A stretch of 64,000 nucleotides of DNA from Verrucomicrobiota bacterium (lineage in GTDB: Bacteria > Verrucomicrobiota > Verrucomicrobiia > Opitutales > UBA953). Location of the stretch: assembly GCA_014193315.1 (NCBI GenBank), contig BJHS01000011.1, forward strand, positions 1 to 64,000, read 5' to 3'. The first letter of the stretch is position 1. Every line of letters begins with the position of its first letter. The translations under genes and the position numbers were made by a program. Shown here piece by piece: positions 649 through 63,980 of the stretch. Under the pieces are notes generated by a model, which made no database searches, was not told the DNA's origin, and saw nothing but the letters and a program-made list of their open reading frames with translations.

Positions 649-704
649 GTGGACAAGGGAGCACGAAGCCCCTTGCCCACGTGCCAACTTGCCCACTTGC
701 CCCC
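649..704. repeat. Octamer array, seven 8-bp units, between purH and parB
   Basis: The spacer reads as seven consecutive 8-bp units: GTGGACAA, GGGAGCAC, GAAGCCCC, then four TTGCCCAC-like units. The last unit ends at 704, directly against the parB stop codon (705-707 on the minus strand). The first unit is close to the reverse complement of the last four, so the array can fold back on itself. It belongs to the octamer family seen at seven other loci in this window. Confidence 0.75.
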
Positions 705-1616
705 TTAGAGTTTGACCCCGATCTTCTCCAGCAGGCGGGCGAGGTCGTCGTCACCGGTGAAGGGAATGGAGATCGTCCCCTTGGTACCCTTACGGACCAC
801 GGTCACGGGGGTGGCGAAATGGGAAGCCAGGCGCTTCTGGACATCGGCGACGACGGTCTTCTCAACCCGCCGGCGATTGCCTTTCTTGGAGACGGCGAAG
901 GCCTTGACCTCAGTCTCGGTGGCGCGGACGGAAAGGCCCTTCTCCACGACCAGGCGAGCGATTTGGACGCGGTGGGCCTGGTTCTCGAGGCCAAGAAGCA
1001 CCTTGGCGTGGCCGGCGCTGAGCTGCCCCTTGCCCAGGTAACCCAGGATCTCGCGGTCGAGTTGGAGCAGGCGGACAAGGTTGGCGATGCTGGCGCGCGG
1101 TTTACCAAGCCGCTCGGCGACGACTTCCTGCGTGAGGTTGAAGTCGCGCATGAGCGAAGCGACGCCCACCGCTTCCTCGACGGGGTTCAGGTCGGAGCGC
1201 TGCAGGTTCTCGACCATGGCCAAGACGGCGCTGGCCGAGTCGCTGGCCTCCATGATGCGCACCGGGATCGACTTCTGGCCGAGCAGCTTGAAGGCCCGGA
1301 GGCGGCGTTCGCCGGCGATCAATTCGTAGCCCGCCTTGACCTTACGCACGACGATCGGCTGCAGGAGGCCCTCGGAACGGATGGACTCGGACAGCTCCTT
1401 CACCGCCGCCTCGTCGAATTCCTTACGGGGTTGATGTGGGTTCGGAACGATGACGGCGACGGGCAGTTCGACCGGCACCAGCAAGTTGGCGGCCGCGACA
1501 GGAGCCGGGGCGGCGGAGGTCGGCGCGGTGGGCGCCGGGGCGGCCGGCTTGGCGACACCGCCGCCGATCAGGTTACCGAGTCCGCGACCGAGGGACTTCT
1601 TGGGAGGGGTGGCCAT
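705..1616 (-). CDS. parB: ParB/Spo0J-family chromosome partitioning protein
   Basis: 303 residues from an ATG at 1616, chosen because the protein then begins with KKSLGRGLGNLIGG, the usual start of chromosomal ParB proteins. The longer frame adds an unrelated 48-residue leader. Visible parts are an Ala/Pro-rich linker (about 22-45), the NPHQPRK box (about 59-65), the GERRLRA CTP-binding motif (102-108), the ENLQRSDLNPVEEA box (136-149), a helix-turn-helix near 165-185, and a C-terminal dimerisation region. ParB loads at parS sites as a CTP-dependent clamp and works with ParA and SMC in origin segregation. No parA lies next to it; the upstream gene, 4 bp away, encodes a LysM protein. I saw no parS-like TGTTTCACGTGAAACA site in the window. 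Confidence 0.95.
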   Translation of the reverse strand: MATPPKKSLGRGLGNLIGGGVAKPAAPAPTAPTSAAPAPVAAANLLVPVELPVAVIVPNPHQPRKEFDEAAVKELSESIRSEGLLQPIVVRKVKAGYELIAGERRLRAFKLLGQKSIPVRIMEASDSASAVLAMVENLQRSDLNPVEEAVGVASLMRDFNLTQEVVAERLGKPRASIANLVRLLQLDREILGYLGKGQLSAGHAKVLLGLENQAHRVQIARLVVEKGLSVRATETEVKAFAVSKKGNRRRVEKTVVADVQKRLASHFATPVTVVRKGTKGTISIPFTGDDDLARLLEKIGVKL

Positions 1617-1620
1617 AGAT

Positions 1621-2208
1621 TTAGCGGGGAAGGGTTTCGGGCTGCGGGATGAAGATCTCGACGTCGGCGCGGAGCGCCGCCGGGCTGGAAAGTTTATTCG
1701 CGGCGAGAATCCACTCGGACTTCGAACCATGCAGCCGCGCCAACTTGGAAACACTGTCACCGGACTTCACGCGGACCTTGATGCCCGTGCGCGGCATGTC
1801 GGCCGGCAGCCCGTCATCCACGGGCGGCTTGTCGGGAGCCGGCGGGACCCCGGCGGGCGGACGGTTCGCCACCGGGGTGGCGCCCTTGCCCGCGAGGGCC
1901 GCGTTCACCTGACGAGTCAGCTCCGCCAGCGCCGCGTTCACCTCGACCATCTGCTGCTTCATGCGACGATCGACCTCGGCCAGGATCTCGGCGCGAGCCT
2001 TGGCGATCGCCTCCGCGCTCCTCGCGGCGGGGGCTTGACCGCCCTTGGACTTGACCAACGCATCGCGTAGGTCCGCATTCTCCAACTTAAGTTTTTCTAC
2101 CTCATTCTTCAGTTCGGCCAAGTCCTGCTGCATCCCGGCAAACTGGGCGGCATTTTGGGCGAAGAGGGGGGCGAGACCGAGGAAAAGGAGGGCGAAACCA
2201 AAGCGCAT
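1621..2208 (-). CDS. Secreted coiled-coil protein with C-terminal LysM domain
   Basis: 195 residues from the ATG at 2208, which gives a clear signal peptide (MRFGFALLFLGLAPLFAQ). Residues about 25-60 and 75-110 are heptad-rich coiled coil (MQQDLAELKNEVEKLKLEN...), followed by an Ala/Pro-rich linker. A single LysM domain covers about 145-190 (VKSGDSVSKLARLHG... followed by IFIPQ). LysM domains bind peptidoglycan, so this is probably a periplasmic or cell-wall-associated protein. It is the first gene of a two-gene minus-strand unit with parB only 4 bp downstream, an odd pairing of envelope and segregation genes. No catalytic domain is visible. Confidence 0.85.
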   Translation of the reverse strand: MRFGFALLFLGLAPLFAQNAAQFAGMQQDLAELKNEVEKLKLENADLRDALVKSKGGQAPAARSAEAIAKARAEILAEVDRRMKQQMVEVNAALAELTRQVNAALAGKGATPVANRPPAGVPPAPDKPPVDDGLPADMPRTGIKVRVKSGDSVSKLARLHGSKSEWILAANKLSSPAALRADVEIFIPQPETLPR

Positions 2209-2346
2209 ACCCCGAGCCAAACACCTCCGCGCCCCAAGGGCAACCCTGTCCGTGGCCTGCGGGACCAAATCATCGGCACCCCTCCCCTGGGCCGCCCCAC
2301 CTTTGCCCCTTTCCTCCCCTTGGGCTTTCCGCTACGACCCCTACCC

Positions 2347-3423: not shown

Positions 3424-3532
3424 GTGATAGGAAATAGGGAGTGGGTTTTGGGTGTTGGGTGCCTACGCCCTACCCCCACATACCCACCCCCCAATCCCTC
3501 AATCTCTTCTCCCTATTCCCTAATTCCTACCC
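3421..3532. repeat. Heptamer array (16 units) forming a hairpin between mnmA and ubiE
   Basis: Starting on the mnmA stop codon, the spacer divides into sixteen 7-bp units with no phase slip. Six are of TAGGNNN/TGGGNNN type (TAGGTGA, TAGGAAA, TGGGTGT...). They are followed by CTACNCC and CCTANNN types (CCTATTC, CCTAATT, CCTACCC). The right-hand units are the reverse-complement class of the left-hand units, so the array can form a long imperfect hairpin. The same TGGGTGT-TGGG-CTA centre recurs at 39455-39524. Confidence 0.8.
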
Positions 3533-3578
3533 CCGCCCTCTGCTTGACCTTCTGCGCTTTGTCCCGAACTTGAACCCC

Positions 3579-4268
3579 ATGCCCGAAGGCTCTGCCGTCC
3601 AACGCCTGTTCGCGGGAATCGCCTCGCGTTACGACCTCGCGAACCGCGTGCTCAGCCTTGGCCTCTGCGTCGGCTGGCGGGACCGCCTGGTCGCCGCGAC
3701 CCAAACGACCAGACCGACCAAGGTCGCCGACCTCGCCACCGGCAGCGGCGACGTGGCCTTTGCGTTGCGGGCGGCGCTACCTGCGTCCACGACCATCACC
3801 GGGTATGATTTCTGTGAGCCGATGCTTGCGCTCGGCCGGAGGCGCGCCGCGAAGGAGAAGGTCGCCCTCGAGTTCCAGCCCGGTGACTGCATGCGCTTGC
3901 CCATCGCCGACGAGGGGTGCGACGCGGTCACGATCGCCTACGGCGTGCGGAACTTCGAAGACCGGGCCCGCGGCCTCCGCGAACTCCGTCGGGTGACCAA
4001 GCCGGGCGGCTCCGTCTTCATCCTCGAGTTCTCCAAACCGGCCGCGTGGTTCGCACCCTTCCACTTCATGCATGTGCGCCTGATCTCGCCAATCCTCGCC
4101 GGACTCCTCACCGGCGATTTCGCCGCCTACCGTTACCTAGGCACCAGCATCGCGGGCTTCCCAGATGCCGCGGGCCTGACGCAGGAACTGAAAAACGCGG
4201 GTTTTTCGGAAGCTAGCCACGAAAGCATGCTGTTCGGTACGGTGGCGCTCCATCGGGCTAAAAAGTAG
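3579..4268 (+). CDS. ubiE: UbiE/MenG (UbiE/COQ5-family) quinone methyltransferase
   Basis: 229 residues from ATG 3579. The start is chosen where MPEGSAVQRLFAGIASRYDLANRVLSLG begins, the typical family N-terminus with the FxxIAxRYD motif. The SAM-binding motif I is VADLATGSGDVAFAL (49-63), followed by the family signature YGVRNFEDR and the LREL..V.KPGG post-motif. The C-methylation step makes menaquinol (or ubiquinol) in the membrane quinone pathway. Which quinone is used cannot be told from this gene alone; menaquinone is usual in this phylum. It follows mnmA after a heptamer array and precedes a tRNA-Arg gene. Confidence 0.93.
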   Translation: MPEGSAVQRLFAGIASRYDLANRVLSLGLCVGWRDRLVAATQTTRPTKVADLATGSGDVAFALRAALPASTTITGYDFCEPMLALGRRRAAKEKVALEFQPGDCMRLPIADEGCDAVTIAYGVRNFEDRARGLRELRRVTKPGGSVFILEFSKPAAWFAPFHFMHVRLISPILAGLLTGDFAAYRYLGTSIAGFPDAAGLTQELKNAGFSEASHESMLFGTVALHRAKK

Positions 4269-4328
4269 GCCTTTCCAAAAACTCCTTGCCATTCGAGTCT
4301 GGGATGGTTCTTTCAATCGTCTCGGAAC

Positions 4329-4403: not shown

Positions 4404-4411
4404 CTTTAAGC

Positions 4412-4445: not shown

Positions 4446-4477
4446 AGGGCATGCCAGGGGCAGGCTTTGGATCATGG

Positions 4478-25830: not shown

Positions 25831-25985
25831 GGACAGAGGCAGGAAACAGGAGAGCACCTCGGTCGTTCGCTCACTTCCTCGCCCTGTCACTAACCCTGTC
25901 CCTGCAACCTAAGGTGGCAGGCGGCATCGCCCCTGACTGGTGCACGCTTAGCCTTGTCCACTGGCCAACTGGCCAGAGGGCCAGC
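25831..25985. repeat. Composite hexamer and octamer repeat block between trpA and pyrB
   Basis: Positions 25831-25850 (GGGACA, GAGGCA, GGAAAC) and 25882-25909 (CTAACC, CTGTCC and relatives) are inverted hexamer-type arms. Positions 25954-25985 are four clean octamers: TTGTCCAC, TGGCCAAC, TGGCCAGA, GGGCCAGC. A C-rich pyrimidine tract then runs on to the pyrB leader. No open frame of interest is present. Confidence 0.7.
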
Positions 25986-26077: not shown

Positions 26078-27019
26078 ATGGCCAAACAAGACTCCTGGAC
26101 GAAGAAAGACCTGACCGGCATCGAGGAACTCAGCCTAGCCGAGATCGAGTTCCTCTTCCGCCAGGCCGACCGTTTCCTGCCCGCCCTCGCCCCGGGCAAA
26201 GGGCTCGACCTGATGAAGGGACGCACGGTGGTGAACCTCTTCCTTGAGCCGAGCACCCGCACCCGCACGGCCTTCGAGATCTCCGCCAAGAAGCTCGGGG
26301 CCGAAGTGGTCTCGATCAACACCACCGCCTCCTCCCTCGTGAAGGGCGAGACGCTTCGCGACACGGCCCTCAACATCCGCGCGATGGGCGTGGACGCCAT
26401 CGTCATGCGCCACTCCTCCGCCGGCGCGGCCCGCTACCTCGGCGAGGTGCTTGATATCTCGGTGGTGAACGCCGGCGACGGGGCTCACGAGCACCCGACC
26501 CAGGCCTTGCTCGACGCCTTCACCCTGCGCCAGCGCTTCGGCAAGGTGGCCGGACTCAAGGTCACCATCCTGGGCGACATCCTTTTCAGCCGCGTCGCCC
26601 GCTCCAACATCCTCTGCCTTTCGAAACTTGGCGCCGAAGTCACCCTCGCGGGCCCGGCCACGCTGGTCCCGGCCGCGCTCAAGGAAGCCTTCCCGCAGGT
26701 CCGCATCGTCCACGACCTGAAGTCCGCCCTGCGCTACTGCGACGCCGTCATGCTGCTGCGCATCCAGCACGAACGGCAGACGACCACGCACTTCCCCTCC
26801 CTCGGTGAGTACACCTCGCAGTTCGGCCTCAACGCCGAACGCGCCGGCTGGCTCAAGCCCAAGGCCATCGTGATGCACCCTGGCCCCATCAACCGCGGGG
26901 TCGAGGTCGAGAGCGAGGTCGCCGACGGCCCCCGCTCCGTGATCCTCGAACAGGTCCGCAACGGCGTCGCCGTCCGCATGGCCGTTCTGCACCTTTGCAC
27001 GAAAGCCCTTTCCCGATGA
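26078..27019 (+). CDS. pyrB: Aspartate carbamoyltransferase catalytic subunit
   Basis: 313 residues. The carbamoyl-phosphate loop STRTR is at 59-63 (FLEPSTRTRTAFE), followed by the KGET loop (SLVKGETLRDT), HPTQALLDAF near 142-151 and the late MHPGPINRGVEV. It makes N-carbamoyl-aspartate in pyrimidine synthesis. Its stop overlaps the start of the dihydroorotase-like gene (ATGA), as in bacteria where the two proteins form a complex. No pyrI regulatory subunit is seen. Confidence 0.97.
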   Translation: MAKQDSWTKKDLTGIEELSLAEIEFLFRQADRFLPALAPGKGLDLMKGRTVVNLFLEPSTRTRTAFEISAKKLGAEVVSINTTASSLVKGETLRDTALNIRAMGVDAIVMRHSSAGAARYLGEVLDISVVNAGDGAHEHPTQALLDAFTLRQRFGKVAGLKVTILGDILFSRVARSNILCLSKLGAEVTLAGPATLVPAALKEAFPQVRIVHDLKSALRYCDAVMLLRIQHERQTTTHFPSLGEYTSQFGLNAERAGWLKPKAIVMHPGPINRGVEVESEVADGPRSVILEQVRNGVAVRMAVLHLCTKALSR

Positions 27020-29274: not shown

Positions 29275-30240
29275 ATGGGCGCCCTGACCACGCAAGCCGA
29301 CCGCTCCGTGGCCAAGCTCACGGAAGAGGAAATCATCCATCGCGTGGTGCAAGCCCTCGGGGTGGCGACCCCGCCTTTCCCGGAAGGACCCGGCGGCGAT
29401 TGCGCCATCCTTGACACGACGCGCGGCGGACGGCGCTACCGCGCCAGCACGGTCGACTCCGTCCTGCTGGGCCGCCATTTCGACTTGGCCTGCGCCGGGC
29501 ATCGCGCGGGCGCGAAGTTGGTCAATCGCAACCTCTCCGACCTCGCCGCCGCCGGCGCCACCCCGTCCGACGGGTTACTCTCGCTTCTCCTGGGCCCCGA
29601 CGTCGACGTCGCTTGGCTGGAAGACTTCGCCCACGGCGCCGGCAAAGCAGCCGCCAAGGCCGGCCTGGATTTGGTCGGCGGCGATATCTGCCGGGCCCCG
29701 GCCGGCATGTTCGCGGGGACGCTGGCCCTGCAAGGCTTCGCCCACCGTGTCCTCACCCGACGGACGGCTACCGTGGGGGATGCCCTGTTTGTCACCGGAC
29801 AACTCGGCGGCTCGCTCTACGGCCACCACCTCGACTTCACCCCGCGACTGGCCGAGGGCGAGTGGCTCTGTGGCCAAGGCGAGGTCACCGCATGCACCGA
29901 CCTCTCTGATGGGCTGGCGAAAGATCTGCCTGGGCTGCTCGGGCCGAAGCTCGACGCGCGCGTGGACCTGACGACGCTCCCGCTCAGCAACGCGGCCCAA
30001 GCGCTGGCCAAGGCCGATGGTAAACCAGCGCACGAGCATGCCCTGAACGACGGCGAGGACTACGAGCTGCTCTTTACCGTCGCCACCGACCGCGCCGACT
30101 TCCTCGAACGCGCCTTCCGCCAAGCCTTCCCGCTCACCCCGCTCACCCGCCTCGGCGCGACCGAAGCCGGCAGCGGCCGCCTCCTCGACCTTGCCACCGG
30201 CGAGCCGGTGAAGGCGAAGGGCTTTGGGCATTTTGGGTGA
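29275..30240 (+). CDS. thiL: Thiamine-monophosphate kinase
   Basis: 321 residues, 3 bp after the previous stop. The PurM-like fold is shown by GPGGDCAILD near 40-49, VDSVLLGRHFD, NRNLSDLAAAGATP, the Gly-rich DLVGGDICRAPAG, VTGQLGGSLYG and LSDGLAKDL, and the C-terminal NDGEDYELLFT. It phosphorylates thiamine monophosphate to the cofactor form. It is the last gene of the pyrB-pyrC'-protease-thiL run. No TPP riboswitch (THI box) is visible in this region. Confidence 0.94.
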   Translation: MGALTTQADRSVAKLTEEEIIHRVVQALGVATPPFPEGPGGDCAILDTTRGGRRYRASTVDSVLLGRHFDLACAGHRAGAKLVNRNLSDLAAAGATPSDGLLSLLLGPDVDVAWLEDFAHGAGKAAAKAGLDLVGGDICRAPAGMFAGTLALQGFAHRVLTRRTATVGDALFVTGQLGGSLYGHHLDFTPRLAEGEWLCGQGEVTACTDLSDGLAKDLPGLLGPKLDARVDLTTLPLSNAAQALAKADGKPAHEHALNDGEDYELLFTVATDRADFLERAFRQAFPLTPLTRLGATEAGSGRLLDLATGEPVKAKGFGHFG

Positions 30241-30261: not shown

Positions 30262-30489
30262 GTTGATCCGTTGATCGGTTGGCCAGTTGGCCGGAGCGTT
30301 ACAAGAGCATGGGCCGATTTTCGATTGAGCGCCAAGAGGGAGTGGTAACCAGACATGAGGAGGCGAAAGGTCACATCGACCCCGGGGATGGCTGTCAGCT
30401 CCGATTGCCATCGCTGCCCTCTCACCGCCCCCGTGCCTTGGGATTGCTGTCTCTCCCTGGCCAACTGGCCAACCGATCAACGGATCAAC
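30262..30489. repeat. Inverted pair of four-unit octamer arms between thiL and the small membrane gene
   Basis: Left arm 30262-30293 is GTTGATCC, GTTGATCG, GTTGGCCA, GTTGGCCG. Right arm 30458-30489 is its reverse complement at 31 of 32 positions. About 164 bp lie between the arms with no clear gene. Each arm is itself a clean 4 x 8-bp tandem array. The element sits between convergent genes. Confidence 0.85.
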
Positions 30490-30503: not shown

Positions 30504-30956
30504 CTACAACTTAAACTGCCGGATGATGACGAAGAGCGCGAAGATCAGGGCGCAACCGGCGAAGGTGACGGTGGTGGTCTCGTAGGTGGAGAGAAGGCGG
30601 ACGACGGTCTCGAGGAGGCCGATGCACTTGGCGGTCTGCACCTCGGCCTTACCCAGCGCCGTCTCGGCATAGCGGGCGGCGGCCTCGAGCTTCTTGTTAT
30701 CCGACTTCACCCCTTCGTCGGTGATGAGGACCACCGCGGTCTCGGTCGACTTCATCGCGACCTTGTAGCCTTCGACGGACTTCTGGATTTCCTTGGTGGC
30801 GGTCAGCACATTGTCCGTGGTGTCTTTCAGCTCGTGGCTGAACCAGAGACCAGCCAGCGAGACGAGCAAGGTCACGACAGCCATGCCGACGATGCCGACT
30901 TCGGCCTGGACGAGGCCACCGCGGACAGGACGGCGGGAGGGTTGGGTCTTATTCAT
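30504..30956 (-). CDS. Small two-TM membrane protein with helical periplasmic middle
   Basis: 150 residues starting MNKTQPSRRPVRG, a basic N-terminus. TM1 is about 20-40 (VGIVGMAVVTLLVSLAGLWF). A heptad-rich helix follows (about 45-120, LKDTTDNVLTATKEIQKSVEG... AETALGKAEVQTAK). TM2 is about 128-147 (VTFAGCALIFALFVIIRQF). The layout resembles small sensor or four-helix-bundle proteins, but no signalling domain follows. It is 18 bp downstream of the holin-like gene and probably cotranscribed with it. Family unrecognised. Confidence 0.65.
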   Translation of the reverse strand: MNKTQPSRRPVRGGLVQAEVGIVGMAVVTLLVSLAGLWFSHELKDTTDNVLTATKEIQKSVEGYKVAMKSTETAVVLITDEGVKSDNKKLEAAARYAETALGKAEVQTAKCIGLLETVVRLLSTYETTTVTFAGCALIFALFVIIRQFKL

Positions 30957-32188: not shown

Positions 32189-32938
32189 ATGCGCACCCCC
32201 GCCGCCTTCCTCCTCGCCTGCCTACTGGCCCTCCCCGCGTTCGCCGCCGACGGTGCCAAGCCCGCCCCCAAGGCGGACGCGAAAGCCGCCTCCCCCAAGC
32301 CGCTCGCGGAACAGCCGTTGCGCATGGCGAAGGATATCGCGGCCTTCGAGGCCAAGGATAAGGCCAACCCACCCCCTCAGCATGCCCTCCTCCTCAGCGG
32401 CGCGAGCTCGTTGCGCATGTGGAAGAATGTGGACGAAGCGCTCAAGCCCTACCTGGTGATCAACCGCGGCTTCGGCGGCTCCTACACCACCGAGGTCCTC
32501 GGTTACATGGATCGCATCACCCTGCCTTACCACCCGCGCGTGGTCGTCTTTCATTGCGGCGGTAATGACGTCAACGCCGGCGACGCGGCCGAGGCCCCGC
32601 TCGGCCGCATCCGCGAGTACGTGAAGCGCCTGCGCAAGGACAACCCCGACTCCGCCGTGGTCTTCATGGCCACCACGCGGGCCCCGTCCCGCAAAGCCAA
32701 GTGGCCGGAACTCGACAAGTTCAACGCCGGCCTCGCCGCCTACTGCAAGGAAGAGTCGAACGTCTGGTTCGTCGATATCAACCCCGCCCTCAATCAGGCC
32801 AGCGGCGAAGGCAAGGAAGGCCACTACCTCAAGGATAACCTCCACCCCAGCGAACTCGGTTACCAAGAAATCGCCAAGGTCCTGAAGCCCTCCGTCGACG
32901 CCGCTTGGAAGGCGACGGAAGCGGCGTTTAAGAAGTAA
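32189..32938 (+). CDS. Secreted SGNH/GDSL-type esterase
   Basis: 249 residues from ATG 32189, giving the signal peptide MRTPAAFLLACLLALPAFAA and an Ala/Lys/Pro-rich linker. Block I is LLLSGASSLRMWKN with the nucleophile at Ser73/74, block II is INRGFGGSYT, block III is CGGNDVNAG (Asn126), and block V is DNLHPSELGY. The full set is present, in contrast to the related but truncated gene at 43049-43408. Likely a periplasmic ester hydrolase; the substrate is unknown. Confidence 0.88.
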   Translation: MRTPAAFLLACLLALPAFAADGAKPAPKADAKAASPKPLAEQPLRMAKDIAAFEAKDKANPPPQHALLLSGASSLRMWKNVDEALKPYLVINRGFGGSYTTEVLGYMDRITLPYHPRVVVFHCGGNDVNAGDAAEAPLGRIREYVKRLRKDNPDSAVVFMATTRAPSRKAKWPELDKFNAGLAAYCKEESNVWFVDINPALNQASGEGKEGHYLKDNLHPSELGYQEIAKVLKPSVDAAWKATEAAFKK

Positions 32939-33278
32939 GCGGGGCTAAATCCGACAGTTGATCTGTCGATCGGTTGGCCGGCTGGCCAGAGGGTGACGCA
33001 TTAAGCCCAGAAAGGAATCCGTTAGGGCTGACCGTCCCCGTCGGACGTGTCTCTTGGGAAAACGCAGCCGAGTACGGATTACGGAGTACGGAACGGCGCA
33101 TCAGCCAAAAAGCAGGCCGCACCCATTCCCTGACCCCATCAGTACTCAGTACTCCGTACTCGCTTCTACACTCCATACTCGATCCAGCACCCGATCCGGC
33201 ACTCTACCGTATCTATCCCCGCCCCTGTCCCTTATCTATTTTACTCCTCCCTCGCCTGCCCCCACCTTCTGACCACCG
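32939..33278. repeat. Gene-free spacer holding an octamer array and composite element copy A
   Basis: This 340-bp spacer holds no gene. Positions 32957-32988 are four octamers (GTTGATCT, GTCGATCG, GTTGGCCG, GCTGGCCA). Positions 33023-33190 form element copy A. It starts TTAGGGCTGACCGTCCC, has a GAGTACG-type heptamer arm (33070-33097), a loop GCATCAGCC...GACCCC, and a CAGTACT/CCGTACT arm (33140-33188). Copy B lies inverted on the other side of the MFS gene. A pyrimidine-rich stretch leads to the MFS start. Confidence 0.8.
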
Positions 33279-34541
33279 ATGTCCTCCCCTTCCGAGCAGC
33301 CCACCCCCGAGCGCTTCCCGAACGGGCCGTTCGTGCGCTACATGGCCGGCGAAGGGATCTCGATGACGGGGACGTGGATGCAGGGTATGGCGTTGGGTTG
33401 GGTCATGACGGAGGTCGTCGCCCGCGAAGGCCTCCAGCGCTATGAAGGTCTCCTCCAAGCCTTGCCGCACCTCGCGAGCGGTCTGGTCATGCTGGCGCTC
33501 TTCCGCCCGGGCGGCGCGTACGCCGACCGCCATGACAAGCGCTTCATTCTTCAGGTCTGTCAGTTCGCGCAGATCGGCTTCGCCCTCGTGATCGGCCAGC
33601 TCATCGCCCACGACGCCTTGCACACCTGGCACCTCATCGCGGCGGCGGCCCTGCTTGGCATCTCCAGTTCATTCGAAATGCCGGCCGCCGCGGCGATCGT
33701 CCCGGAACTCGTAGCCAAGGAGAACGTCGCCAAGGCCATCTCGGTGGACCGCGCGGTCTTCCACGCCACCCGACTCGTCGGTCCGGCCGCCGCCGGCTAC
33801 CTCGTCACCAGCTACGGCGCCGAATGGGCTTTTTACCTGAACGCGGCTTCTTTCGTGGCGCTGATGATCGCACTGGCCACCCTACCCCGTCGACCGCAAG
33901 GCACGGCCGAGGAAGAGCAGAAACGTCAAGGCGGGGCCGGGGAAGGCTTTCGTCACGTCCGCCAGGACAAACCTAGCCTCGCGATGGTCGCCCTACTCGC
34001 GACCAACACGCTCTTCGTCTTCCCCGTCATCATCGTACTCCTCCCGCTGTACGCGAAGAACGACCTCCACGCCACCGCCAAGGAAATGGGCCTGTTGATG
34101 CTGTGCTCCGGACTGGGCTCGGTCTCCGGATCACTCCTCATCATGGCGCTGAATGTCGCGTGGCGCCGCATCGCCATCCTGACCGGCATGGTCCTCGCCT
34201 GCGGCGCGCTCGTCAGTCTCAGCCAGGCCACCGGACTGATTTGGGCTGGCCTCTCGCTCGTCACCCTGGCCGTGGGCGTGTCCACGCTGGTTGGCCTCGC
34301 CAACACCATCGTCCAAGAACGCTCGCCGGCGGAGCTGCGCGGGCGCGTCTCCGCGGTGGCTGGACTGAGCTTCTTCGGCTTCCTACCCTTCGCCGCGGTC
34401 ATCATGGGCTGGATGACCGACCTCTTCAAACTACGCAACGTCCTGCTAGGCTCGTCGATCTGCTACGCCATCATCGGTCTTCTCGTGATGCTCACCCTCG
34501 GCAGCAAGGTCACCGGGGACGAGGAACGCAGCAGTGAGTAG
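33279..34541 (+). CDS. MFS transporter, EntS-like (MFS_3) exporter
   Basis: 420 residues with about 11-12 membrane segments. The N-terminus FPNGPFVRYMAGEGISMTGTWMQGMALGWVM is typical of the EntS/MFS_3 group. The A-motif-like loop GGAYADRHDKRFILQ follows TM2, then ISSSFEMPAAAAIVPELVAKENVAKAISVDRAVFHATRLVGPAAAGYLV. The second half repeats the fold with VQERSPAELRGRVSAVAGLSFFG. Members export siderophores or drugs; the substrate is unknown. The gene is flanked by two inverted copies of a composite repeat, and its TAG stop is part of a GAGTAGG heptamer. Confidence 0.9.
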   Translation: MSSPSEQPTPERFPNGPFVRYMAGEGISMTGTWMQGMALGWVMTEVVAREGLQRYEGLLQALPHLASGLVMLALFRPGGAYADRHDKRFILQVCQFAQIGFALVIGQLIAHDALHTWHLIAAAALLGISSSFEMPAAAAIVPELVAKENVAKAISVDRAVFHATRLVGPAAAGYLVTSYGAEWAFYLNAASFVALMIALATLPRRPQGTAEEEQKRQGGAGEGFRHVRQDKPSLAMVALLATNTLFVFPVIIVLLPLYAKNDLHATAKEMGLLMLCSGLGSVSGSLLIMALNVAWRRIAILTGMVLACGALVSLSQATGLIWAGLSLVTLAVGVSTLVGLANTIVQERSPAELRGRVSAVAGLSFFGFLPFAAVIMGWMTDLFKLRNVLLGSSICYAIIGLLVMLTLGSKVTGDEERSSE

Positions 34542-34780
34542 GCCGCGGGGAGTAGGGAGTGGGGAGTCGAGTCCTGGATCGAGTACAGAGGGCTGAGTTC
34601 TGAGTATAGAGAGCTGAGTACAGATCGGGTCAGGAAATTGGTATGTTCTGCTTTTGGGCTGATGCATCGTACTGTACTCCGCAATCCGTACTCAGCTGCG
34701 ACCCCCCAAAAGTCACGGCCGACCGGGACGGTCAGCCCTACCTAATTAATAACTGTCCCTGTCCCGTCCCTGCCCCTGGC
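34536..34780. repeat. Composite repeat element copy B (inverted) with hexamers
   Basis: Heptamers GAGTAGG/GAGTGGG begin on the MFS stop codon. A clean run of six GAGNNNN units covers 34581-34622 (GAGTACA, GAGGGCT, GAGTTCT...). The loop 34623-34665 and the arm 34669-34695 follow, and the end GGGACGGTCAGCCCTA (34725-34740) is the mirror of the start of copy A. Hexamers CTGTCC, CTGTCC continue at 34753-34770. Read on the minus strand, it is homologous to 33023-33190 over the whole length. Confidence 0.8.
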
Positions 34781-35829: not shown

Positions 35830-37107
35830 CTATTTACGGGCGAGCACCCGGTCCGCAAAATCGAGGTAGGCCTGCCAATCCTCGAGCGTGACGTCATGCT
35901 TACCGGCACGCACGTGGTAGCCGATGGACTGGCCGACCCTCTGGCCGACCGCCGGGTAGACCTCGGTGCCAAGGCCAGGCTGGCCGAGGAGTTTAAAGAC
36001 CGGCTCGGCCGCCAGCGCCCCGAGGAACTCGCCCTTGGGGTCCGACCAGCGGTCCTCGACGGCGCTGGCGACGTAGAGCGGGCGGGGGGCGATGAGCGCG
36101 AGGAGGTGGTGCTGGTCAAGGGGCATGCGGTCCTCTTTCTCGGCGAAGGTGGCGTAGCGGGCGGTGAACCAATGCGGGAAGCCGCGACCAGGGTAAGCGC
36201 CGGCGATGATGCCGACGGTCTCGCCGAAGATCCGTTTGCCGAGGGCGGCACCGCCGCAACCGGACTCATTGGAGATGATGAGCGCAAAACGTTCGTTCTG
36301 GGCGCCGGCCCAGAGCGAGGCCTTGCCGAGACGCGAATGACCAATCACGGCGACACGCTTGGCGTCGACCGCGGGAATCTGCTCGAGCGCGTCGAGCGAA
36401 CGCGAGAGGCCCCAGGCCCACGCGCCGATGCAGGCCCAGTCGCCATCCTTCCACACGGTATTCGCACCGTCAGGGGAGAGCGCCGCGCGGAAGCCCTGCT
36501 TCCAGCCTTCGGGGAAGTCGGGTTCGAAATCCCCGCAGTAGACCGTCGCCAGCGCGTAGCCGCGCGCGATTAGAGTCTCGACCTGCCAGCGGGCGGCCTG
36601 ACTACCCCGCCCTTTCTCGGCAGCGCGGCTCGACCCATCGGCCGCGGCCCACTGCTTCGAGACCCAGGTGGAGGGCAGGAGGACCGCCTTATCTTCAACC
36701 GCGGTGTGATTGCCGCCGAAATTGAGCCCGAGAAAAACCGGGACAGCCCCCTTCGCCCCATTGGGTACGTAAAGCAAGAGATCGAAGGCCGGGCCGGACT
36801 TGCCGATCGGCCAGACCTTGAGCTGCGTGCGCGTGGCCTTGCCGTCGAGGGCCGTGGCGGAAGTTTCGACGACCTCGGACACCGCGGCCAGCTGGCGCGG
36901 ACGCGTGTCGGGCGTGCGACCGTAGATGTTCTCCTCGACCAGCTTCATCACCTCGGGTCGGCGGGACTCGCGCCACTGCTTCGCCTCCACGACCCGGCGG
37001 CCGGCGTTGTCCACCAGCGGATCCGGCAGCGTGTACGGCGGCACCTTCGCCTCATCATCGATCGTGGCAGGTATCGTCGCGGCCAGGAAAAGCAGGGGTA
37101 GAAGCAT
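35830..37107 (-). CDS. CE15-family glucuronoyl methylesterase
   Basis: 425 residues with a weak N-terminal signal (MLLPLLFLAATIPAT). The alpha/beta-hydrolase nucleophile is Ser258 in VIGHSRLGKASLW. SNESGCGG follows (about 280-287), then VEDRWSDPKGEF and the late KHDVT His near 408. GLNFGGNHT near 127-134 forms the oxyanion region. In CE15 enzymes these residues cleave ester links between lignin alcohols and glucuronoyl side chains of xylan. Bacterial members have GHSRLG as here. The first bases of the gene run straight into a heptamer repeat array. Confidence 0.9.
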   Translation of the reverse strand: MLLPLLFLAATIPATIDDEAKVPPYTLPDPLVDNAGRRVVEAKQWRESRRPEVMKLVEENIYGRTPDTRPRQLAAVSEVVETSATALDGKATRTQLKVWPIGKSGPAFDLLLYVPNGAKGAVPVFLGLNFGGNHTAVEDKAVLLPSTWVSKQWAAADGSSRAAEKGRGSQAARWQVETLIARGYALATVYCGDFEPDFPEGWKQGFRAALSPDGANTVWKDGDWACIGAWAWGLSRSLDALEQIPAVDAKRVAVIGHSRLGKASLWAGAQNERFALIISNESGCGGAALGKRIFGETVGIIAGAYPGRGFPHWFTARYATFAEKEDRMPLDQHHLLALIAPRPLYVASAVEDRWSDPKGEFLGALAAEPVFKLLGQPGLGTEVYPAVGQRVGQSIGYHVRAGKHDVTLEDWQAYLDFADRVLARK

Positions 37108-37108
37108 G

Positions 37109-37256
37109 AGGGATTGGGGTTTAAGTATTAGGAATCAGGGATTAGGTTTTAGAAAGACGGAAATAATCACCGAACTAAAACCCACCCCTTCTTCCCACCC
37201 CCCTAACACCTAATCCCCAATCCCTAATCCCTACTCCCTATTTCCCCCTCTCCTAC
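37109..37256. repeat. Inverted heptamer arrays between CE15 and folA
   Basis: Left arm 37109-37157 has seven units (AGGGATT, GGGGTTT, AAGTATT, AGGAATC, AGGGATT, AGGTTTT, AGAAAGA). Right arm 37201-37256 has eight units of the complementary class (CCCTAAC, ACCTAAT, CCCCAAT, CCCTAAT...). The left arm starts one base after the CE15 start codon, and the last right-hand unit contains the folA stop codon. The AT-rich centre has no gene. Confidence 0.85.
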
Positions 37257-42728: not shown

Positions 42729-42787
42729 TAGGGACGAGCGTCCCTGCTCGTCCGCCCCACGCACTGCCCCTGACCCTGTCCCTGACC
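42729..42787. repeat. 26-bp hairpin repeat copy 2 followed by a hexamer array
   Basis: Positions 42729-42754 repeat 4478-4503 at 23 of 26 bases and hold the stem GGACGAGC/GCTCGTCC. Positions 42764-42787 are four hexamers: CTGCCC, CTGACC, CTGTCC, CTGACC. The block lies between glnS and tRNA-Ser; no gene is seen. Confidence 0.65.
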
Positions 42788-42872
42788 CTTTCATGGGCCT
42801 TTCGTGCGTCCTTTCTTCTCCCTTGACCCACCCCCCTCCCTGCCTTTGATGCACCTTCTAGCTGGTCAACAA

Positions 42873-52362: not shown

Positions 52363-53679
52363 ATGGCCAACCCAAGCGCAAGCGAACTCCTGAACAAAGC
52401 CCTCGCCACGGCGGCGACCGGCGATGTGACCGCGACGAAGGCCGACTTCGACAAGGCGATGAAGGCGGCCGAGTTCGGCGATGGCGGCACGCTCGACCAC
52501 GTGATGCATGCCTATGCGGCCTACTTGCGGGCGCAGCGGGAGTTCCCGAAGGCGATCCAACTGAACCGCATGCGACTCGACCTGCGACGCCTCGCCAAAC
52601 GGGAGGAGCCCGGCCTGATCGTGGACGGCATCCTCGACCTAGCGATCACGCTGCGCGGGGCCGGCGAGAACCTCGAGGCGGAGGCTTTGCTGCATGAGGC
52701 CATCGCCATGGCCGAGGCTTCACCGATGCCATCGGCGCTGGTGGCGAACGCGTTGATCTACCTCAGCATGCATCACTTGGAGCGCAAGGAGTTCGCCAAG
52801 GAGCTGGCGTTGCTCGAGCGCGCATTGAAGGCCCGAGAGGCGGACCCAACCTGCCCTCCCGCCGAACTGGCCCTCACCCGCGACCAAACCGCCAAGGCCT
52901 GCCTGCGCGCCAAGGATTTTCCCCGCGCCCGCGAGCTTTTGAGCCAAGCCCTACCGGTGCTCGACACGACGCCGCAGTTCGACCTCGACCCGAATATCCC
53001 CCAAGGCTGGCTAGCCTTGGCCACGCTTTGCGCCGAACAAGGAAACCTGCCTGCGGCCGCCCGCCACGCCCGCCAGGCCTTTGAGCGAGCCCGGAAGTTA
53101 GCCAGCAAACTACCCCATGCGCCCACGGAACTGCATTTCTTCGTGCTCCAGACCGCCCACCAGGCCGCGACCTACGCGGCGATGGCGCAGCAACCCGCCG
53201 AGGCCGCCCAGCTCACCTGGGAGGCTCATGAGCACGCCAAGGCGAATTTCGCAGGCAACCCGCTGCCCGCCCTGGAGACCTTACAGATTCACTTGAACTA
53301 CGTGATTGGCGCAGGGGAATTCGCCAAGGCCGAGCCGCTGATGCGCCAGGTGGTGGCAGGCAAGATGATGCTGCTCGGCGAGGACCACCTCGATCTCAGC
53401 GTCCCCTTCAATAACCTCGGGTTCATCCTCATGAACCTCGGTAAGGATGCCGAGGCCGAGACCTGCTTCCGCAAGGCCTGGGCCGCGTGCGTGCGCGCCC
53501 CCGCCACCGAACACAACGGCCACGCGCTTAAGAATCTCGGCCTGCTTTATCAGAAACAAGGCAAGACCGCCGAGGCCACCGCTGAGTTCAAGGCCGCCCT
53601 CGCCGTACTGGAACCACAGCTCGGCGCAGAGCATCCCGTGGTGAAGATGGTGAGGGCGGGAGCGGCCAGCTCCCGCTAG
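52363..53679 (+). CDS. TPR-repeat protein
   Basis: 438 residues from ATG 52363; the earlier in-frame ATG lies inside the sulfatase gene and was rejected. No signal peptide, so cytosolic. About eight tetratricopeptide-like helix pairs are visible, most clearly at the C-terminus (LSVPFNNLGFILMNLGKDAEAETCFRKAWAA, GHALKNLGLLYQKQGKTAEATAEFKAALAVLEPQLG), similar to kinesin-light-chain-type TPRs. Function unknown beyond protein binding. A hairpin (GCGGGAGC/GCTCCCGC, 53656-53676) occupies the last codons, and an octamer array starts on the last base of the stop codon. Confidence 0.82.
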   Translation: MANPSASELLNKALATAATGDVTATKADFDKAMKAAEFGDGGTLDHVMHAYAAYLRAQREFPKAIQLNRMRLDLRRLAKREEPGLIVDGILDLAITLRGAGENLEAEALLHEAIAMAEASPMPSALVANALIYLSMHHLERKEFAKELALLERALKAREADPTCPPAELALTRDQTAKACLRAKDFPRARELLSQALPVLDTTPQFDLDPNIPQGWLALATLCAEQGNLPAAARHARQAFERARKLASKLPHAPTELHFFVLQTAHQAATYAAMAQQPAEAAQLTWEAHEHAKANFAGNPLPALETLQIHLNYVIGAGEFAKAEPLMRQVVAGKMMLLGEDHLDLSVPFNNLGFILMNLGKDAEAETCFRKAWAACVRAPATEHNGHALKNLGLLYQKQGKTAEATAEFKAALAVLEPQLGAEHPVVKMVRAGAASSR

Positions 53680-53923
53680 CTGGCCGGCGGGCAAGTGGGC
53701 CGGTGGACAAGGGGTGGTGCGTTTGCCGCCTAGTTAGAGAAACAAACAGGGTCAGGGAAAGGGAGGCAGAGGTTTGAGGGATTAGGGAGTGGGGAGTGGG
53801 CCGAACACCTACTTCCTAAATCCTAGACCTCTTCAGAGCTGCTGCCCCTACCCGCGCGCGGAGCGCGATAAAAGCGGAGACAGGTCTACCCTTGCCCACG
53901 TGCCCAGTGGCCAGCCGGCCAGC
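53679..53923. repeat. Nested octamer-hexamer-heptamer-octamer block between the TPR gene and tag
   Basis: Octamers at 53679-53710 (GCTGGCCG, GCGGGCAA, GTGGGCCG, GTGGACAA) pair with the inverted octamers at 53892-53923 (TTGCCCAC, GTGCCCAG, TGGCCAGC, CGGCCAGC). Between them are hexamers (53747-53770, CAGGGT, CAGGGA, AAGGGA, GGCAGA) and eight heptamers (53776-53831) that rise as TAGGGAG/TGGGGAG and fall as ACTTCCT/AAATCCT. No gene is seen in this convergent spacer. Confidence 0.82.
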
Positions 53924-54971: not shown

Positions 54972-55294
54972 GGAAAAGTCCAGTTTGGTCGGACGTCAGG
55001 GGAAAAGCAAGGGGCCGAAGCGAGCTTCGCTCGCGAGGGATTGGGGAATAGGTGGCAGGGAGGAGCTGATGGTACGGGCAACGGCCCGACCCGTCGCTTA
55101 AGTTGCTATATTTCCTCACGCTCAAGGCCTCAGAGCCTCTGGGCCTCTAACTACTTCCTAATCCCTACTCCCTAGTCCCCTACTTAGAAGGAACCTTCGC
55201 CGCCAAAAGCACTCCTATACGTTCGACAATGGTGCAGGCATGGCTCAAATCGACCTAACCTACCCCGCACCCACCCCTTTTACCCAAGCACCCT
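54972..55294. repeat. Divergent spacer with heptamer and octamer arrays
   Basis: Left heptamers at 55036-55063 (AGGGATT, GGGGAAT, AGGTGGC, AGGGAGG) face right-hand heptamers at 55153-55187 (ACTTCCT, AATCCCT, ACTCCCT, AGTCCCC, TACTTAG). Directly before the right arm are four octamers, 55121-55152 (CTCAAGGC, CTCAGAGC, CTCTGGGC, CTCTAACT). The remaining 100 bp lead to the 55295 start through a C-rich leader and probably contain its promoter; no gene is seen. Confidence 0.7.
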
Positions 55295-59919: not shown

Positions 59920-59931
59920 CCTGCGGCGCGG

Positions 59932-62367: not shown

Positions 62368-62380
62368 GTCGTCACCTCCC

Positions 62381-62420
62381 GGGGCGGGGCGGCCGCCAGG
62401 CCGCCCCGCCCCACTCTTTT
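62381..62420 (+). terminator. Strong hairpin and T-tract after the Gfo/Idh gene
   Basis: A 14-bp perfect GC stem, GGGGCGGGGCGGCC with its complement and a 4-base loop, is followed by ACTCTTTT. It stands between two functionally linked genes only 70 bp apart, so it may act as an attenuator as well as a terminator. Confidence 0.85.
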
Positions 62421-62437
62421 ACCATACCCGCACCCCT

Positions 62438-63823
62438 ATGAAGAAGCCCCTCCTCACCCTCGCCCTGTTGCCCCTCGCCGCCTTCGGCGCGGAGATCTTC
62501 AACGGCAAGGACCTCACCGGATTCGCCAAGAAAGGCGGCGAAGCCACCTACGCCGTCAAGGACGGTATCCTCGTCGGCACCTCGACGCTGAACACCCCGA
62601 ACACCTTCCTCGCCACCGAGAAAGACTACGCGAACTTCGTCCTCGAGTACGACTTCCTGAACGACCCGCGCCTCAACTCCGGCGTGCAGTTCCGCAGCCA
62701 TGCCTACGACAAGGCGACCGAGATCGTCGACGCCGCCGGCAAGACCATCAAGGTCCCCGCCGGTCGCGTACACGGCTACCAGGCCGAGATCGACACCGAC
62801 CCCAAGAACGTGAAGAAGCCCGACACCCTGGCCCGCATGTGGTCCGCCGGCCTCTACGAGGAAGGCCGCCGCGGCTGGATCGTCCCGGGCTTCGGCGGTG
62901 GCGACGCCCTCGCCTTCTCCAAGCAAGGCCGCGAGGTCAGCAAGGTCGGCGAGTGGAACCACGTGAAGGTCGAGGCCAACGGCAACCGCGTCCGCACCTG
63001 GCTTAACGGCGTCCAGCGCGTCGACGTCCGCGACGACGGCGACCTCGCCGGCTTCATCGCCTTCCAAGTCCACGGGATCGGCAACGCCAAGGACCGCGCC
63101 GGCACTACCGTGCAGTGGAAGAACATCACCCTCACCGAAGTCGCCGACAACACCCTGACCGAGTCCGAGAAGTCCGACGGCTGGGTGCTGCTCTTTGACG
63201 GCGTCTCGACCAAGGGCTGGCGCTCGGCCAAGGGCCCGGCGTTTCCCGAGTCGGGCTGGTCCGTCAAGGAAGGCACTCTCCGCACCGCGGCCTCGGGCGG
63301 CAAGGAATCCGCCGCCGCCGGGGACATCGTCACCCTCGGAGCCTACAAGCAGTTCGAAGTCACGGTCGACTTCAAGCTGACCACCGGCGCCAACAGCGGC
63401 CTCAAGTACTACGCGCAACCGTCCCTCAACCAAGGCGCCGGCTCGGCCTTCGGCCTCGAATTCCAGATGCTCGACGACGACGTCCACGCCGACGCCAAAC
63501 TGGGCCGCGACGGCAACCGCACGGTCTCGTCGCTCTACGACCTGATCACCGCCAAGAACAAGCGCCCCAACGCCATCGGCCAGTGGAACAACGCCTACGT
63601 CGTGACCAAGGGCACCAAGGTCGAGCACTGGCTCAACGGCCGTCTGGTTGTCGCCTATGACCGTGGCTCGCAGGAGTTCCGCGATCTCCGGGCCAAGTCC
63701 AAGTACGCCGACCCCAAGTTCGGCGCGAACTTCGGCGAGTGGGAATCCGGCCACATCCTGCTGCAAGAACACGGCGACGAAGTCTGGTTTAAGAACGTCA
63801 AGATTCGCGACCTGAGCAAGTAA
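62438..63823 (+). CDS. Secreted protein with two DUF1080 (3-keto-glycoside hydrolase-like) domains
   Basis: 461 residues from ATG 62438 with signal peptide MKKPLLTLALLPLAAFGAE. Domain 1 (about 19-230) starts IFNGKDLTGFAKKGGEATYAVKDGILVGTS and has NSGVQFRSHAYD and GYQAEIDTD. Domain 2 (about 240-460) starts WVLLFDGVSTKGWRSAKGPAFPESGWSVKEGTLRT and has NSGLKYYAQP and LEFQMLDDDVHAD. Both keep the family NSG segment and a late W.N..V, so both may bind sugar. Paired with the upstream Tat oxidoreductase, it fits a periplasmic oxidise-then-cleave glycoside pathway. Confidence 0.9.
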   Translation: MKKPLLTLALLPLAAFGAEIFNGKDLTGFAKKGGEATYAVKDGILVGTSTLNTPNTFLATEKDYANFVLEYDFLNDPRLNSGVQFRSHAYDKATEIVDAAGKTIKVPAGRVHGYQAEIDTDPKNVKKPDTLARMWSAGLYEEGRRGWIVPGFGGGDALAFSKQGREVSKVGEWNHVKVEANGNRVRTWLNGVQRVDVRDDGDLAGFIAFQVHGIGNAKDRAGTTVQWKNITLTEVADNTLTESEKSDGWVLLFDGVSTKGWRSAKGPAFPESGWSVKEGTLRTAASGGKESAAAGDIVTLGAYKQFEVTVDFKLTTGANSGLKYYAQPSLNQGAGSAFGLEFQMLDDDVHADAKLGRDGNRTVSSLYDLITAKNKRPNAIGQWNNAYVVTKGTKVEHWLNGRLVVAYDRGSQEFRDLRAKSKYADPKFGANFGEWESGHILLQEHGDEVWFKNVKIRDLSK

Positions 63824-63846
63824 GGCCGGCGTCAGCCGACCGCGAT

Positions 63847-63872
63847 GGCGGGCCTCCGGGCCCGCCTTTTTT
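63847..63872 (+). terminator. Intrinsic terminator after the two-domain DUF1080 gene
   Basis: GGCGGGCC (63847-63854) pairs with GGCCCGCC (63859-63866) across a 4-base loop and is followed directly by TTTTTT. Confidence 0.92.
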
Positions 63873-63896
63873 GCGCCGATGCAAGGGGGCACGCCC

Positions 63897-63980
63897 GTGC
63901 CCACATGCCCACTGGCCAGCGTGCCAGCCCTGTCTCCCCCCCTTGCCTTTCCTGCCCCTACTCCCTAGTCCCCTACTCCC
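63897..63980. repeat. Octamer array followed by heptamers at the right edge
   Basis: Four octamers cover 63897-63928 (GTGCCCAC, ATGCCCAC, TGGCCAGC, GTGCCAGC). A CTGTCTCC and C-rich tract follow, then heptamers at 63958-63978 (CTACTCC, CTAGTCC, CCTACTC), ending two bases before the next ATG. Confidence 0.75.

What the first reader, a model, noticed from the sequence alone, without database searches (positions are those of the whole stretch)
649..63928. A family of degenerate 4 x 8-bp tandem arrays confined to spacers
Eight-base-phased arrays occur at 649-704, 25954-25985, 30262-30293, 30458-30489, 32957-32988, 53679-53710, 53892-53923, 55121-55152 and 63897-63928. Most have exactly four units, with cores such as TTGCCCAC, TGGCCAAC, GTTGATCG and GTTGGCCA. 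Units differ within and between loci, yet the phase is never broken. Unit content drifts while period and copy number stay fixed. That argues for a structural or protein-binding role, or for a dedicated generating mechanism, rather than simple slippage. I know of no described verrucomicrobial repeat of this kind. Short tandem repeats of cyanobacteria are the nearest analogy from memory.
Basis: seen in the sequence. Interest (0 to 1): 0.78.

Follow-up and report, generated by a model that had tools for sequence, protein, structure and literature searches.

The report
Strand-oriented degenerate repeat modules between genes
The short, imperfect 8-letter repeat arrays seen between genes of this lake bacterium are real, belong to a larger lineage-specific vocabulary of 6-, 7- and 8-letter arrays, and mostly point one way relative to the neighbouring genes, which hints at a role at the ends of gene transcripts.

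Summary
All nine arrays exist as stated, outside called genes. Period-8 spacer windows number 23 against 1.4 in shuffles; period 7 is stronger (35 vs 1.1); genes are 20-30 times poorer in both. For the main one (GTTGAYCN GTTGAYCA GTTGGCCN GTTGGCCA) 227 of 296 distinct non-coding copies have exactly four units. In 27 orthologous pairs, unit positions 1 and 4 changed at 0 and 1 of 108 sites, position 8 at 37.

The G-rich strand mostly reads inward from the gene edges (36 of 41, 73 of 90 and 179 of 215 arrays). Opposed family A neighbours face inward 21 times, outward never. Family A starts within 60 nt after a stop 99 times, next to a start 13 times.

Gaps between opposed arrays are mostly unique (24 of 38), which speaks against an ordinary MITE. 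RNA-pair coevolution tests were negative or weak. High counts are confined to one Opitutae genus. Best reading: REP-like dispersed modules, probably acting on RNA at 3' ends. Mechanism unproven.

The parts
30262..30293 (+). Family A array GTTGATCC GTTGATCG GTTGGCCA GTTGGCCG, 21 nt after the stop of the + gene 29275-30240; left arm of an opposed pair in a convergent spacer
30458..30489 (-). Family A array (reverse complement GTTGATCC GTTGATCG GTTGGCCA GTTGGCCA), 14 nt after the stop of the - gene 30504-30956; right arm of the same pair
32957..32988 (+). Family A array GTTGATCT GTCGATCG GTTGGCCG GCTGGCCA, 18 nt after the stop of the + gene 32189-32938
649..664 (+). Family B left arm (2 units, GTGGACAA GGGAGCAC)
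   Evidence: the orthologous spacer in G051 also has opposed B arms with other units
673..704 (-). Family B right arm (4 units, TTGCCCAC GTGCCAAC TTGCCCAC TTGCCCCC)
25954..25985 (-). Family B array upstream of the + gene 26078-27019 (C-rich strand is sense)
   Evidence: similar array at the orthologous place in G051
53679..53710 (+). Family B left arm; its head TAG coincides with the stop codon of gene 52363-53679; kept in G051 with one change
53892..53923 (-). Family B right arm of the same spacer; this arm is missing in the orthologous G051 spacer
55121..55152 (-). Family F array (CTCAAGGC CTCAGAGC CTCTGGGC CTCTAACT; G-strand GAGGCYCN)
63897..63928 (-). Family B array after gene 62438-63823, upstream of a gene that apparently starts at the window's right end (read from the sequence, not called)
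33070..33092 (+).
33139..33161 (-). Family C right arm
34548..34567 (+). Family D, period 7 (GGGAGTA), after the stop of gene 33279-34541
37202..37240 (-). Family D array; an opposed degenerate arm is visible by eye at about 37107-37150
53777..53800 (+). Family D array between the family B arms 53679 and 53892
55151..55179 (-). Family D array next to the family F array
42764..42789 (-). Family E, period 6 (AGGGTC/AGGGAC)

Best explanation
The arrays are dispersed extragenic modules of REP size (about 32-40 bp for the 8-bp families), each built of tandem 8-, 7- or 6-nt units. SHOWN: they are far commoner in spacers than in genes or shuffles; they are richest in convergent spacers; in most cases the G-rich strand reads inward from the gene edge, so a transcript tends to carry the G-rich form after its stop codon and the C-rich form before the next start. 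SHOWN for the first family: the usual number of units is four, each with its own type, and two Gs per unit (positions 1 and 4) hardly change between orthologues while position 8 drifts. STRONGLY INDICATED: copies of that family descend from a common 32-40-bp word rather than from separate slippage. INFERRED: because orientation follows transcription, the working form is most likely the G-rich RNA just after the stop codon; regular G contacts every 8 nt over four units would be read by an RNA-binding or RNA-end-processing protein (3'-end formation, stabilisation or insulation of the neighbouring gene), much as REP elements are thought to do. INFERRED: spread is by copying of single arms between spacers (ectopic recombination or template switching), not by transposition of the whole paired structure.
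For: Excess and rarity in genes: (41 arrays vs 2.3 shuffled in G000; 90 vs 3.4 in G051). Four units with unit-specific types, 5 of 301 in genes, 99 within 60 nt after a stop vs 13 next to a start. Orientation by spacer half: 36 of 41, 73 of 90, 179 of 215. Opposed neighbours of family A: 21 inward, 0 outward in 131 spacers; all families, G-then-C vs C-then-G: 8 vs 0, 20 vs 3, 35 vs 1. Within 80 nt after stops: G-sense 49, C-sense 8; before starts: C-sense 30, G-sense 1 (two genomes summed). Conserved G1/G4, free position 8, in 27 orthologous pairs. Convergent vs divergent spacers with arrays: 9 of 40 vs 4 of 95 (G000), 18 of 41 vs 9 of 81 (G051). In G000 and G051 together (spacers of 100 bp or more), stops with a G-sense array within 80 nt have an intrinsic terminator in 2 of 42 cases, stops of array-free spacers in 57 of 220 (Fisher p 0.002), stops of spacers with arrays elsewhere in 13 of 48.
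Against: The terminator result did not repeat in 76 loci of other genomes: 5 of 61 vs 7 of 70, and 11 of 57 with arrays elsewhere. Orientation has exceptions in 12-19% of arrays by spacer half and 4 outward pairs against 63. No binding protein or processing enzyme was identified. Array-free spacers already have C-rich leaders (sense GC skew about -0.13 to -0.22 before starts), so the C-sense-before-start half may reflect a general leader bias; after stops array-free spacers show skew near 0. Orthologous sites often lack the array (127 comparisons, not de-duplicated, against 27 distinct pairs with it), so any function is dispensable locus by locus. Retained pairs were defined by 24 or more of 32 matches, which limits the change that could be seen. 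104 of 252 family A arrays have a start as upstream edge, usually far away (median 159 nt). Array-bearing trailers fold less stably than array-free ones (-33 vs about -39 kcal/mol per 100 nt).
Confidence: 0.4

Rival explanations
1. Foldback or MITE-like mobile elements: each G-arm and C-arm pair is the terminal inverted repeat of a non-autonomous transposon that inserted whole.
For: Arms in one spacer tend to be of the same family: mean complementarity 15.0 vs 7.8 permuted in G000 (8 spacers, 0 of 200 permutations), 13.1 vs 8.7 in G051 (18 spacers, 0 of 200). The spacer that holds the pair at 30262/30458 is only tens of bp long and without arrays in the 27 fetched congeners other than G014 and G051. 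A family C interior recurs at two window loci and, in G051, in a local triplication.
Against: 24 of 38 gaps between a G-array and the next C-array (17 of the 26 with like period) have no match elsewhere in the fetched part of the genome, and several of the others match embedded GTAG palindromes or local duplications; but only about a third of each genome was searched, so rare copies could be missed. In loci of other genomes arm concordance was weak (11.7 vs 10.4, reached in 16 of 200). Successive whole insertions should give outward-facing neighbours, but C-then-G order is 4 against 63. Many family A arrays have no family A partner in the spacer. No Y1 transposase match in the own genome or G051; other transposase families were not searched.
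Confidence: 0.2
2. RNA (or cruciform) hairpins: the two arms of a spacer, or units 1-2 with 3-4 of one array, pair, and the pairing is what is selected.
For: Inward order of arms and family concordance in a spacer. Units of family A can pair with each other if G-U is allowed; arrays fold better than mononucleotide shuffles (-9.2 vs -6.4 kcal/mol) and the sense strand better than the antisense (-11.4 vs -8.7 with 6-nt flanks). Mismatches on the transcribed strand of tandem spacers: G-U 11, A-C 5; convergent spacers, + strand: 15 vs 3 (few pairs).
Against: Own partner is no better than other same-family arms in G051 (rank 0.52, n 14; 0.79, n 5 in G000). Without regard to transcription G-T and A-C mismatches are about equal (15 and 18; 62 and 51). 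Swapping units between arrays leaves the folding energy unchanged (-9.06 +- 0.14 vs -9.17) and the natural unit order is not the best-folding one. Array-bearing trailers fold less stably than array-free ones. By inspection several families (D, E) have little internal complementarity; not tested.
Confidence: 0.15
3. Neutral debris: selfish or mutationally generated repeats (slippage plus template-switch copying of one arm into the other), with orientation left by purifying selection against G-rich leaders only.
For: Very fast turnover between orthologous spacers, with the family exchanged in at least two of 11; unit-number changes; template switching can create and maintain hairpins (PMC8794818, search listing and start of abstract only).
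Against: Does not explain G-sense after stops (49 vs 8), four units with unit-specific types, or G1/G4 conservation.
Confidence: 0.2
4. Double-stranded DNA operator: tandem 8-bp subsites for an oligomeric DNA-binding protein, for example in nucleoid organisation.
For: Two nearly invariant Gs per unit, fixed spacing, four subsites.
Against: Orientation follows transcription; families of different period share the same bias.
Confidence: 0.05

Closest known systems
REP elements / BIMEs and RAYT-mobilised GTAG palindromes (PMC3733652, passages read)
   Same: About 20-40 bp, extragenic, often downstream of genes, single, in opposed pairs and in clusters; O. terrae (Verrucomicrobia) is described there as highly enriched in GTAG repeats.
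   Different: Here no GTAG tag and no single stable palindrome, but four 8-nt tandem units with inward orientation bias. In 12 fetched loci with a Y1-type gene of the genus, only 3 hold loose 3-unit array matches, while 5 hold GTAG palindromes. GTAG palindromes coexist with the arrays in the same spacers.
TAACTGA heptamer direct repeats of Beggiatoaceae (PMC4679880, abstract and section list read)
   Same: Intergenic short tandem repeats in sets of a few copies, proposed to act after transcription.
   Different: One fixed heptamer, mostly just upstream of start codons; here degenerate units of period 6, 7 and 8, family A mostly after stops.
G-quadruplex heptamer repeats of Xanthomonas and Nostoc (PMC4692102, search listing and start of abstract only)
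   Same: G-rich arrays of short period; period-6 arrays here often carry four GGG runs (0.73 in G051 vs 0.09 shuffled, 0.38 vs 0.07 in G000).
   Different: Family A does not fit a quadruplex (four GG runs in 9%).
STRR sequences of cyanobacteria (recalled)
   Same: Short tandem heptamers between genes.
   Different: Perfect copies of a heptamer; here unit content varies with fixed phase.
STAR elements of staphylococci (PMC3532100, search listing and start of abstract only)
   Same: Interspersed intergenic direct repeats that vary in location between species.
   Different: No comparison of sequences or organisation was made.

Membership tests
REP elements | 20-40 bp, many extragenic copies | tested here: met
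   296 of 301 distinct family A arrays outside called genes, 227 of 296 are 32 bp
REP elements | GTAG or CGTC tag at one end | tested here: not met
   Family A copies of 4-5 units are preceded by YTA in 37% of 249 and otherwise varied
REP elements | Imperfect palindrome giving a stable stem-loop | tested here: inconclusive
   Sense MFE -9.2 vs -6.4 mono-shuffled, but no coevolution and natural unit order not optimal
REP elements | Cognate RAYT transposase gene in the genome | tested here: not met
   PF01797: 0 matches in G000 and G051; 28 of 55 genus genomes match at E 0.001, 24 over the cut-off; array-rich G025 also has none
MITE / foldback transposon | Conserved element including interior, flanked by terminal inverted repeats | tested here: not met
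   24 of 38 gaps between opposed arrays unique in the fetched third of their genome; family C is a partial exception
MITE / foldback transposon | Target-site duplication at an empty orthologous site | not tested
   The nearest relatives found are 88-89% identical in one protein and spacers do not align closely enough
Intrinsic terminators | GC-rich hairpin followed by T run | tested here: not met
   2 of 42 stops with a near G-sense array have one anywhere in the spacer
G-quadruplex repeats | Four runs of GG or GGG with short loops | tested here: inconclusive
   GGG runs enriched for period 6, GG runs for period-8 arrays of the general scan (0.64 vs 0.36 and 0.30 shuffled), 9% in family A
Known Rfam RNA | Match at gathering score | tested here: not met
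   The window's only matches are four tRNAs

The most novel reading that the evidence does not exclude
A new class of RNA-level punctuation. In this freshwater Opitutae genus each lineage keeps its own vocabulary of degenerate 6/7/8-nt tandem codes; a dedicated oligomeric protein reads regularly spaced Gs (G1 and G4 of each 8-nt unit, four units) in the trailer of transcripts, and the code words are copied from spacer to spacer, so a whole transcript-end system changes its words while keeping its grammar.
Probability: 0.2. Interest if true: 0.85.

Novelty: new variant of a known kind. Interest (0 to 1): 0.6.

Why it matters
It shows a bacterial lineage whose gene spacers carry a set of lineage-specific degenerate repeats with a clear bias of direction (80-90% of arrays, 63 of 67 opposed neighbours). 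If the trailers act on RNA, this would be a transcript-end system different from both intrinsic terminators and known REP-based ones, and it gives a natural experiment: the same orthologous 3' ends with and without arrays, or with different families, in dozens of species. It also warns that standard tandem-repeat searches miss such elements: TRF reported period 8 at only 5 of the 9 arrays.

Tried and rejected
Slippage alone: unlikely for family A because unit types are position-specific and the usual copy number is four. Whole-element transposition: gaps between opposed arrays are mostly unique in what was searched. RAYT mobilisation: no Y1_Tnp match in the own genome; of 12 fetched Y1 loci 5 carry GTAG palindromes and 3 carry loose 3-unit array matches. 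RNA pairing of units 1-4/2-3: attractive from the consensus fold, not supported by unit-swap and order tests. Mutual information between columns seemed mostly to reflect sub-families. G-quadruplex as a general explanation: fits some period-6 arrays, not family A. Terminator replacement: significant in two genomes, not repeated in loci of other genomes. DNA methylation: in BS10 the reported methylated motif is ACGAG (PMC6329791, passages read), unrelated to the array words. C-rich arms as Rho loading sites: considered, not tested. Register-locked switching between 8-bp families: offsets were spread from -4 to +3, so not supported. One search used loose orthology and a low identity cut-off; both are superseded (one search gave 8% change at positions 1 and 4, 37% at position 8). 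One search failed for a scripting error and was rerun.
Full report
Check of the observation. The nine arrays are present as written. With a simple codon-usage gene caller trained on 864 kb of the same genome, eight lie between called genes and the ninth (63897) after the last called gene of the window. In 301 spacers (50,643 bp), windows with 16 or more of 24 matches at lag 8 number 23, against 1.4 +- 1.1 in 30 dinucleotide shuffles; the density is 4.54 per 10 kb in spacers and 0.21 in genes. Lag 7 gives 35 against 1.1, lag 14 gives 20 against 1.4, lag 6 gives 15 against 1.8 (but genes also have 3.1 per 10 kb at lag 6, a multiple of three); lags 4 and 5 show a small excess (8 and 7 against 1.8 and 1.7), lags 9, 10, 11 and 13 none. 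The gene caller is crude, so start positions and some short genes are approximate.

Anatomy. An array scan (periods 6-8) gives 41 arrays in the G000 sample (2.3 +- 1.2 in 10 shuffles; periods 7: 22, 8: 11, 6: 8) and 90 in the sample of the relative G051 (3.4 +- 1.6). Period-7/8 arrays in genes: 13 in 805,620 bp and 16 in 688,161 bp, against 33 and 64 in the spacers. By eye the words fall into about ten families (labels are mine): A GTTGAYCN, B GTGGGCAN/GCTGGCCN, F GAGGCYCN and J GTGCAAAN (period 8), C GAGTACN, D GGGAGTA, G GCGGTTA, K GGAAACC, L GGTGGCG (period 7), E CAGGGN and TAGGGC (period 6). They are mixed with GTAG palindromes of the usual REP kind.

Direction bias. In G000 19 G-rich arrays lie in the left half of their spacer and 17 C-rich ones in the right half, against 4 C-left and 1 G-right; in G051 38 and 35 against 7 and 10; in 76 loci of other genomes (the 80 listed, less two from G051 and two with non-Opitutae titles) 93 and 86 against 16 and 20. 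That is 36 of 41, 73 of 90 and 179 of 215. Neighbouring arrays are ordered G-then-C 8, 20 and 35 times and C-then-G 0, 3 and 1 times. For family A alone, in 131 spacers, opposed neighbours face inward 21 times and outward 0 times, and like-directed neighbours number 63. Within 80 nt of a gene edge, arrays after stops are G-sense 49 and C-sense 8; before starts C-sense 30 and G-sense 1 (two genomes summed). Array-free spacers have C-rich leaders but almost no skew after stops.

Family A census. Among sources totalling 2.33 Mb (own sample and loci, G051 sample, the 80 listed loci, the loci) there are 301 distinct arrays with at least three units, 5 of them in called genes. Of the other 296, 227 have four units, 44 three, 22 five, 2 six, 1 nine. 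Units 1-2 are mostly GTTGA, units 3-4 mostly GTTGG; position 8 is mixed. 99 arrays begin within 60 nt after a stop and 13 within 60 nt of a start; 6 end within 60 nt of a gene. The loci were fetched because they contain family A, so densities there mean nothing; order and orientation were not selected for.

Evolution. In 27 distinct orthologous pairs (upstream flank 72-98.5% identical, array kept at 24 or more of 32 ungapped positions) substitutions by unit position are 0, 7, 5, 1, 11, 18, 14, 37 of 108 each. The array on one side was chosen for GTTG, the other side was not, but the 24-of-32 cut-off favours similar arrays. In 127 further comparisons (not de-duplicated) the array is not there. 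At the 30262 spacer, G014 keeps the left array with changes only at unit positions 6 and 8 (its contig ends before the right one), G051 has other modules, and the other 27 fetched congeners have a spacer of tens of bp without arrays (30 of 49 matching genomes were fetched). Of 52 spacers aligned between G000 and G051, 11 hold a G000 array; in two of them (window 3424-3578 and 37108-37252) the period-7 family of G000 is replaced by period-6 arrays in G051 with G arms left and C arms right in both.

Distribution. GTTGATCNGTTGGCCN with one mismatch: 40 places in the own genome, 0 for the reversed control. Among 54 congeners 50 have a match, 23 of them 9 or more (up to 71); 18 other genomes of the family have 0-2 and 42 of the order 0-6. 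The reversed control is not always empty in array-rich genomes (up to 23 in G029). A scan of the 84,980-species collection for a stricter pattern found 93 stretches; of the 80 listed, 77 have Opitutae, Opitutus or Verrucomicrobia-type titles. Family C is found in 16 of 55 genomes of the genus, 11 of them with 14 or more places, and not in array-rich G029, G034 and G011, so the words are distributed separately. Stretches of G068, G091, G106 and of the congener G041 (the last chosen as poor in A and C) hold 4, 2, 6 and 2 arrays against 1.0, 0.2, 1.4 and 0.8 shuffled; those of G029, G040 and G021, partly chosen around known places, hold 7, 19 and 38 against 0.2, 0.4 and 0.8 (periods 5-10).

Mechanism tests. 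Arms of one spacer are of the same family more often than permuted (0 of 200 permutations in G000 and G051; 16 of 200 in the other loci), but within a family the own partner is hardly better than others. Swapping units between arrays does not change folding energy and the natural unit order is not optimal. Gaps between opposed arrays have no match elsewhere in the fetched part of the genome in 24 of 38 cases, 17 of 26 where both arrays have the same period. A Y1 transposase is not found in the own genome or G051. Stops followed by a G-sense array mostly lack intrinsic terminators in G000 and G051 (2 of 42 vs 57 of 220) but the difference is absent in other loci (5 of 61 vs 7 of 70). Rfam finds only four tRNAs in the window.

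Conclusion. The arrays are best filed as REP-like dispersed extragenic modules of a new build, whose orientation and conserved Gs point to a role on RNA at transcript ends. The acting partner, the copying mechanism and even the need for a function remain unshown. Paper searches (open-access library only; others listed titles each, of many more matches) listed no description of such arrays in Verrucomicrobia. Passages of a Lake Biwa long-read study (PMC9426551) mention intergenic tandem repeats at deletions, in a context of Planctomycetes, but nothing of this kind. Subscription papers were not searched.

Noticed in passing
G051 stretches L284-L323, own sample: Repeated GTAG-headed palindromes (GTAGGGACCAGCGT.., GTAGGGCTGACCGT.., GTAGGGGCAGCACC..; 23, 15 and 14 copies in the G051 sample) although no Y1 transposase match was found in G000 or G051.
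   Followed up: partly
L332, L335: Two loci with a Y1-type transposase match in congeners hold clusters of near-identical GTAG palindromes, as expected of REPtrons.
   Followed up: partly
window 53677-53710: The stop codon TAG of gene 52363-53679 is at the same time the head TAG of a family B array; the same holds in G051.
   Followed up: no
G051:C7, about 66383-67040 (L287): A unit with family C arms and a GTAG palindrome is repeated in tandem at the place where G000 has one related copy (window 32939-33278).
   Followed up: partly
array-free spacers of G000 and G051 samples: Sequence just upstream of start codons is C-rich (sense GC skew about -0.13 to -0.22), with almost no skew after stops.
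   Followed up: partly
L189, L204, L216: Three of the 80 listed pattern matches have titles outside Verrucomicrobia (Polynucleobacter MAG, Rhodobacteraceae MAG, Pseudomonas). L189 has flanks about 81% identical to an own-genome locus, so it is probably a mislabelled bin; L204 and L216 resemble each other and may be a coincidental coding match, not checked.
   Followed up: partly
G041 stretches L350-L355: The one low-GC congener sampled (GC 0.53) has almost no arrays while G029, G040 and G021 (GC 0.60-0.62) are rich; whether this is a rule was not tested.
   Followed up: no
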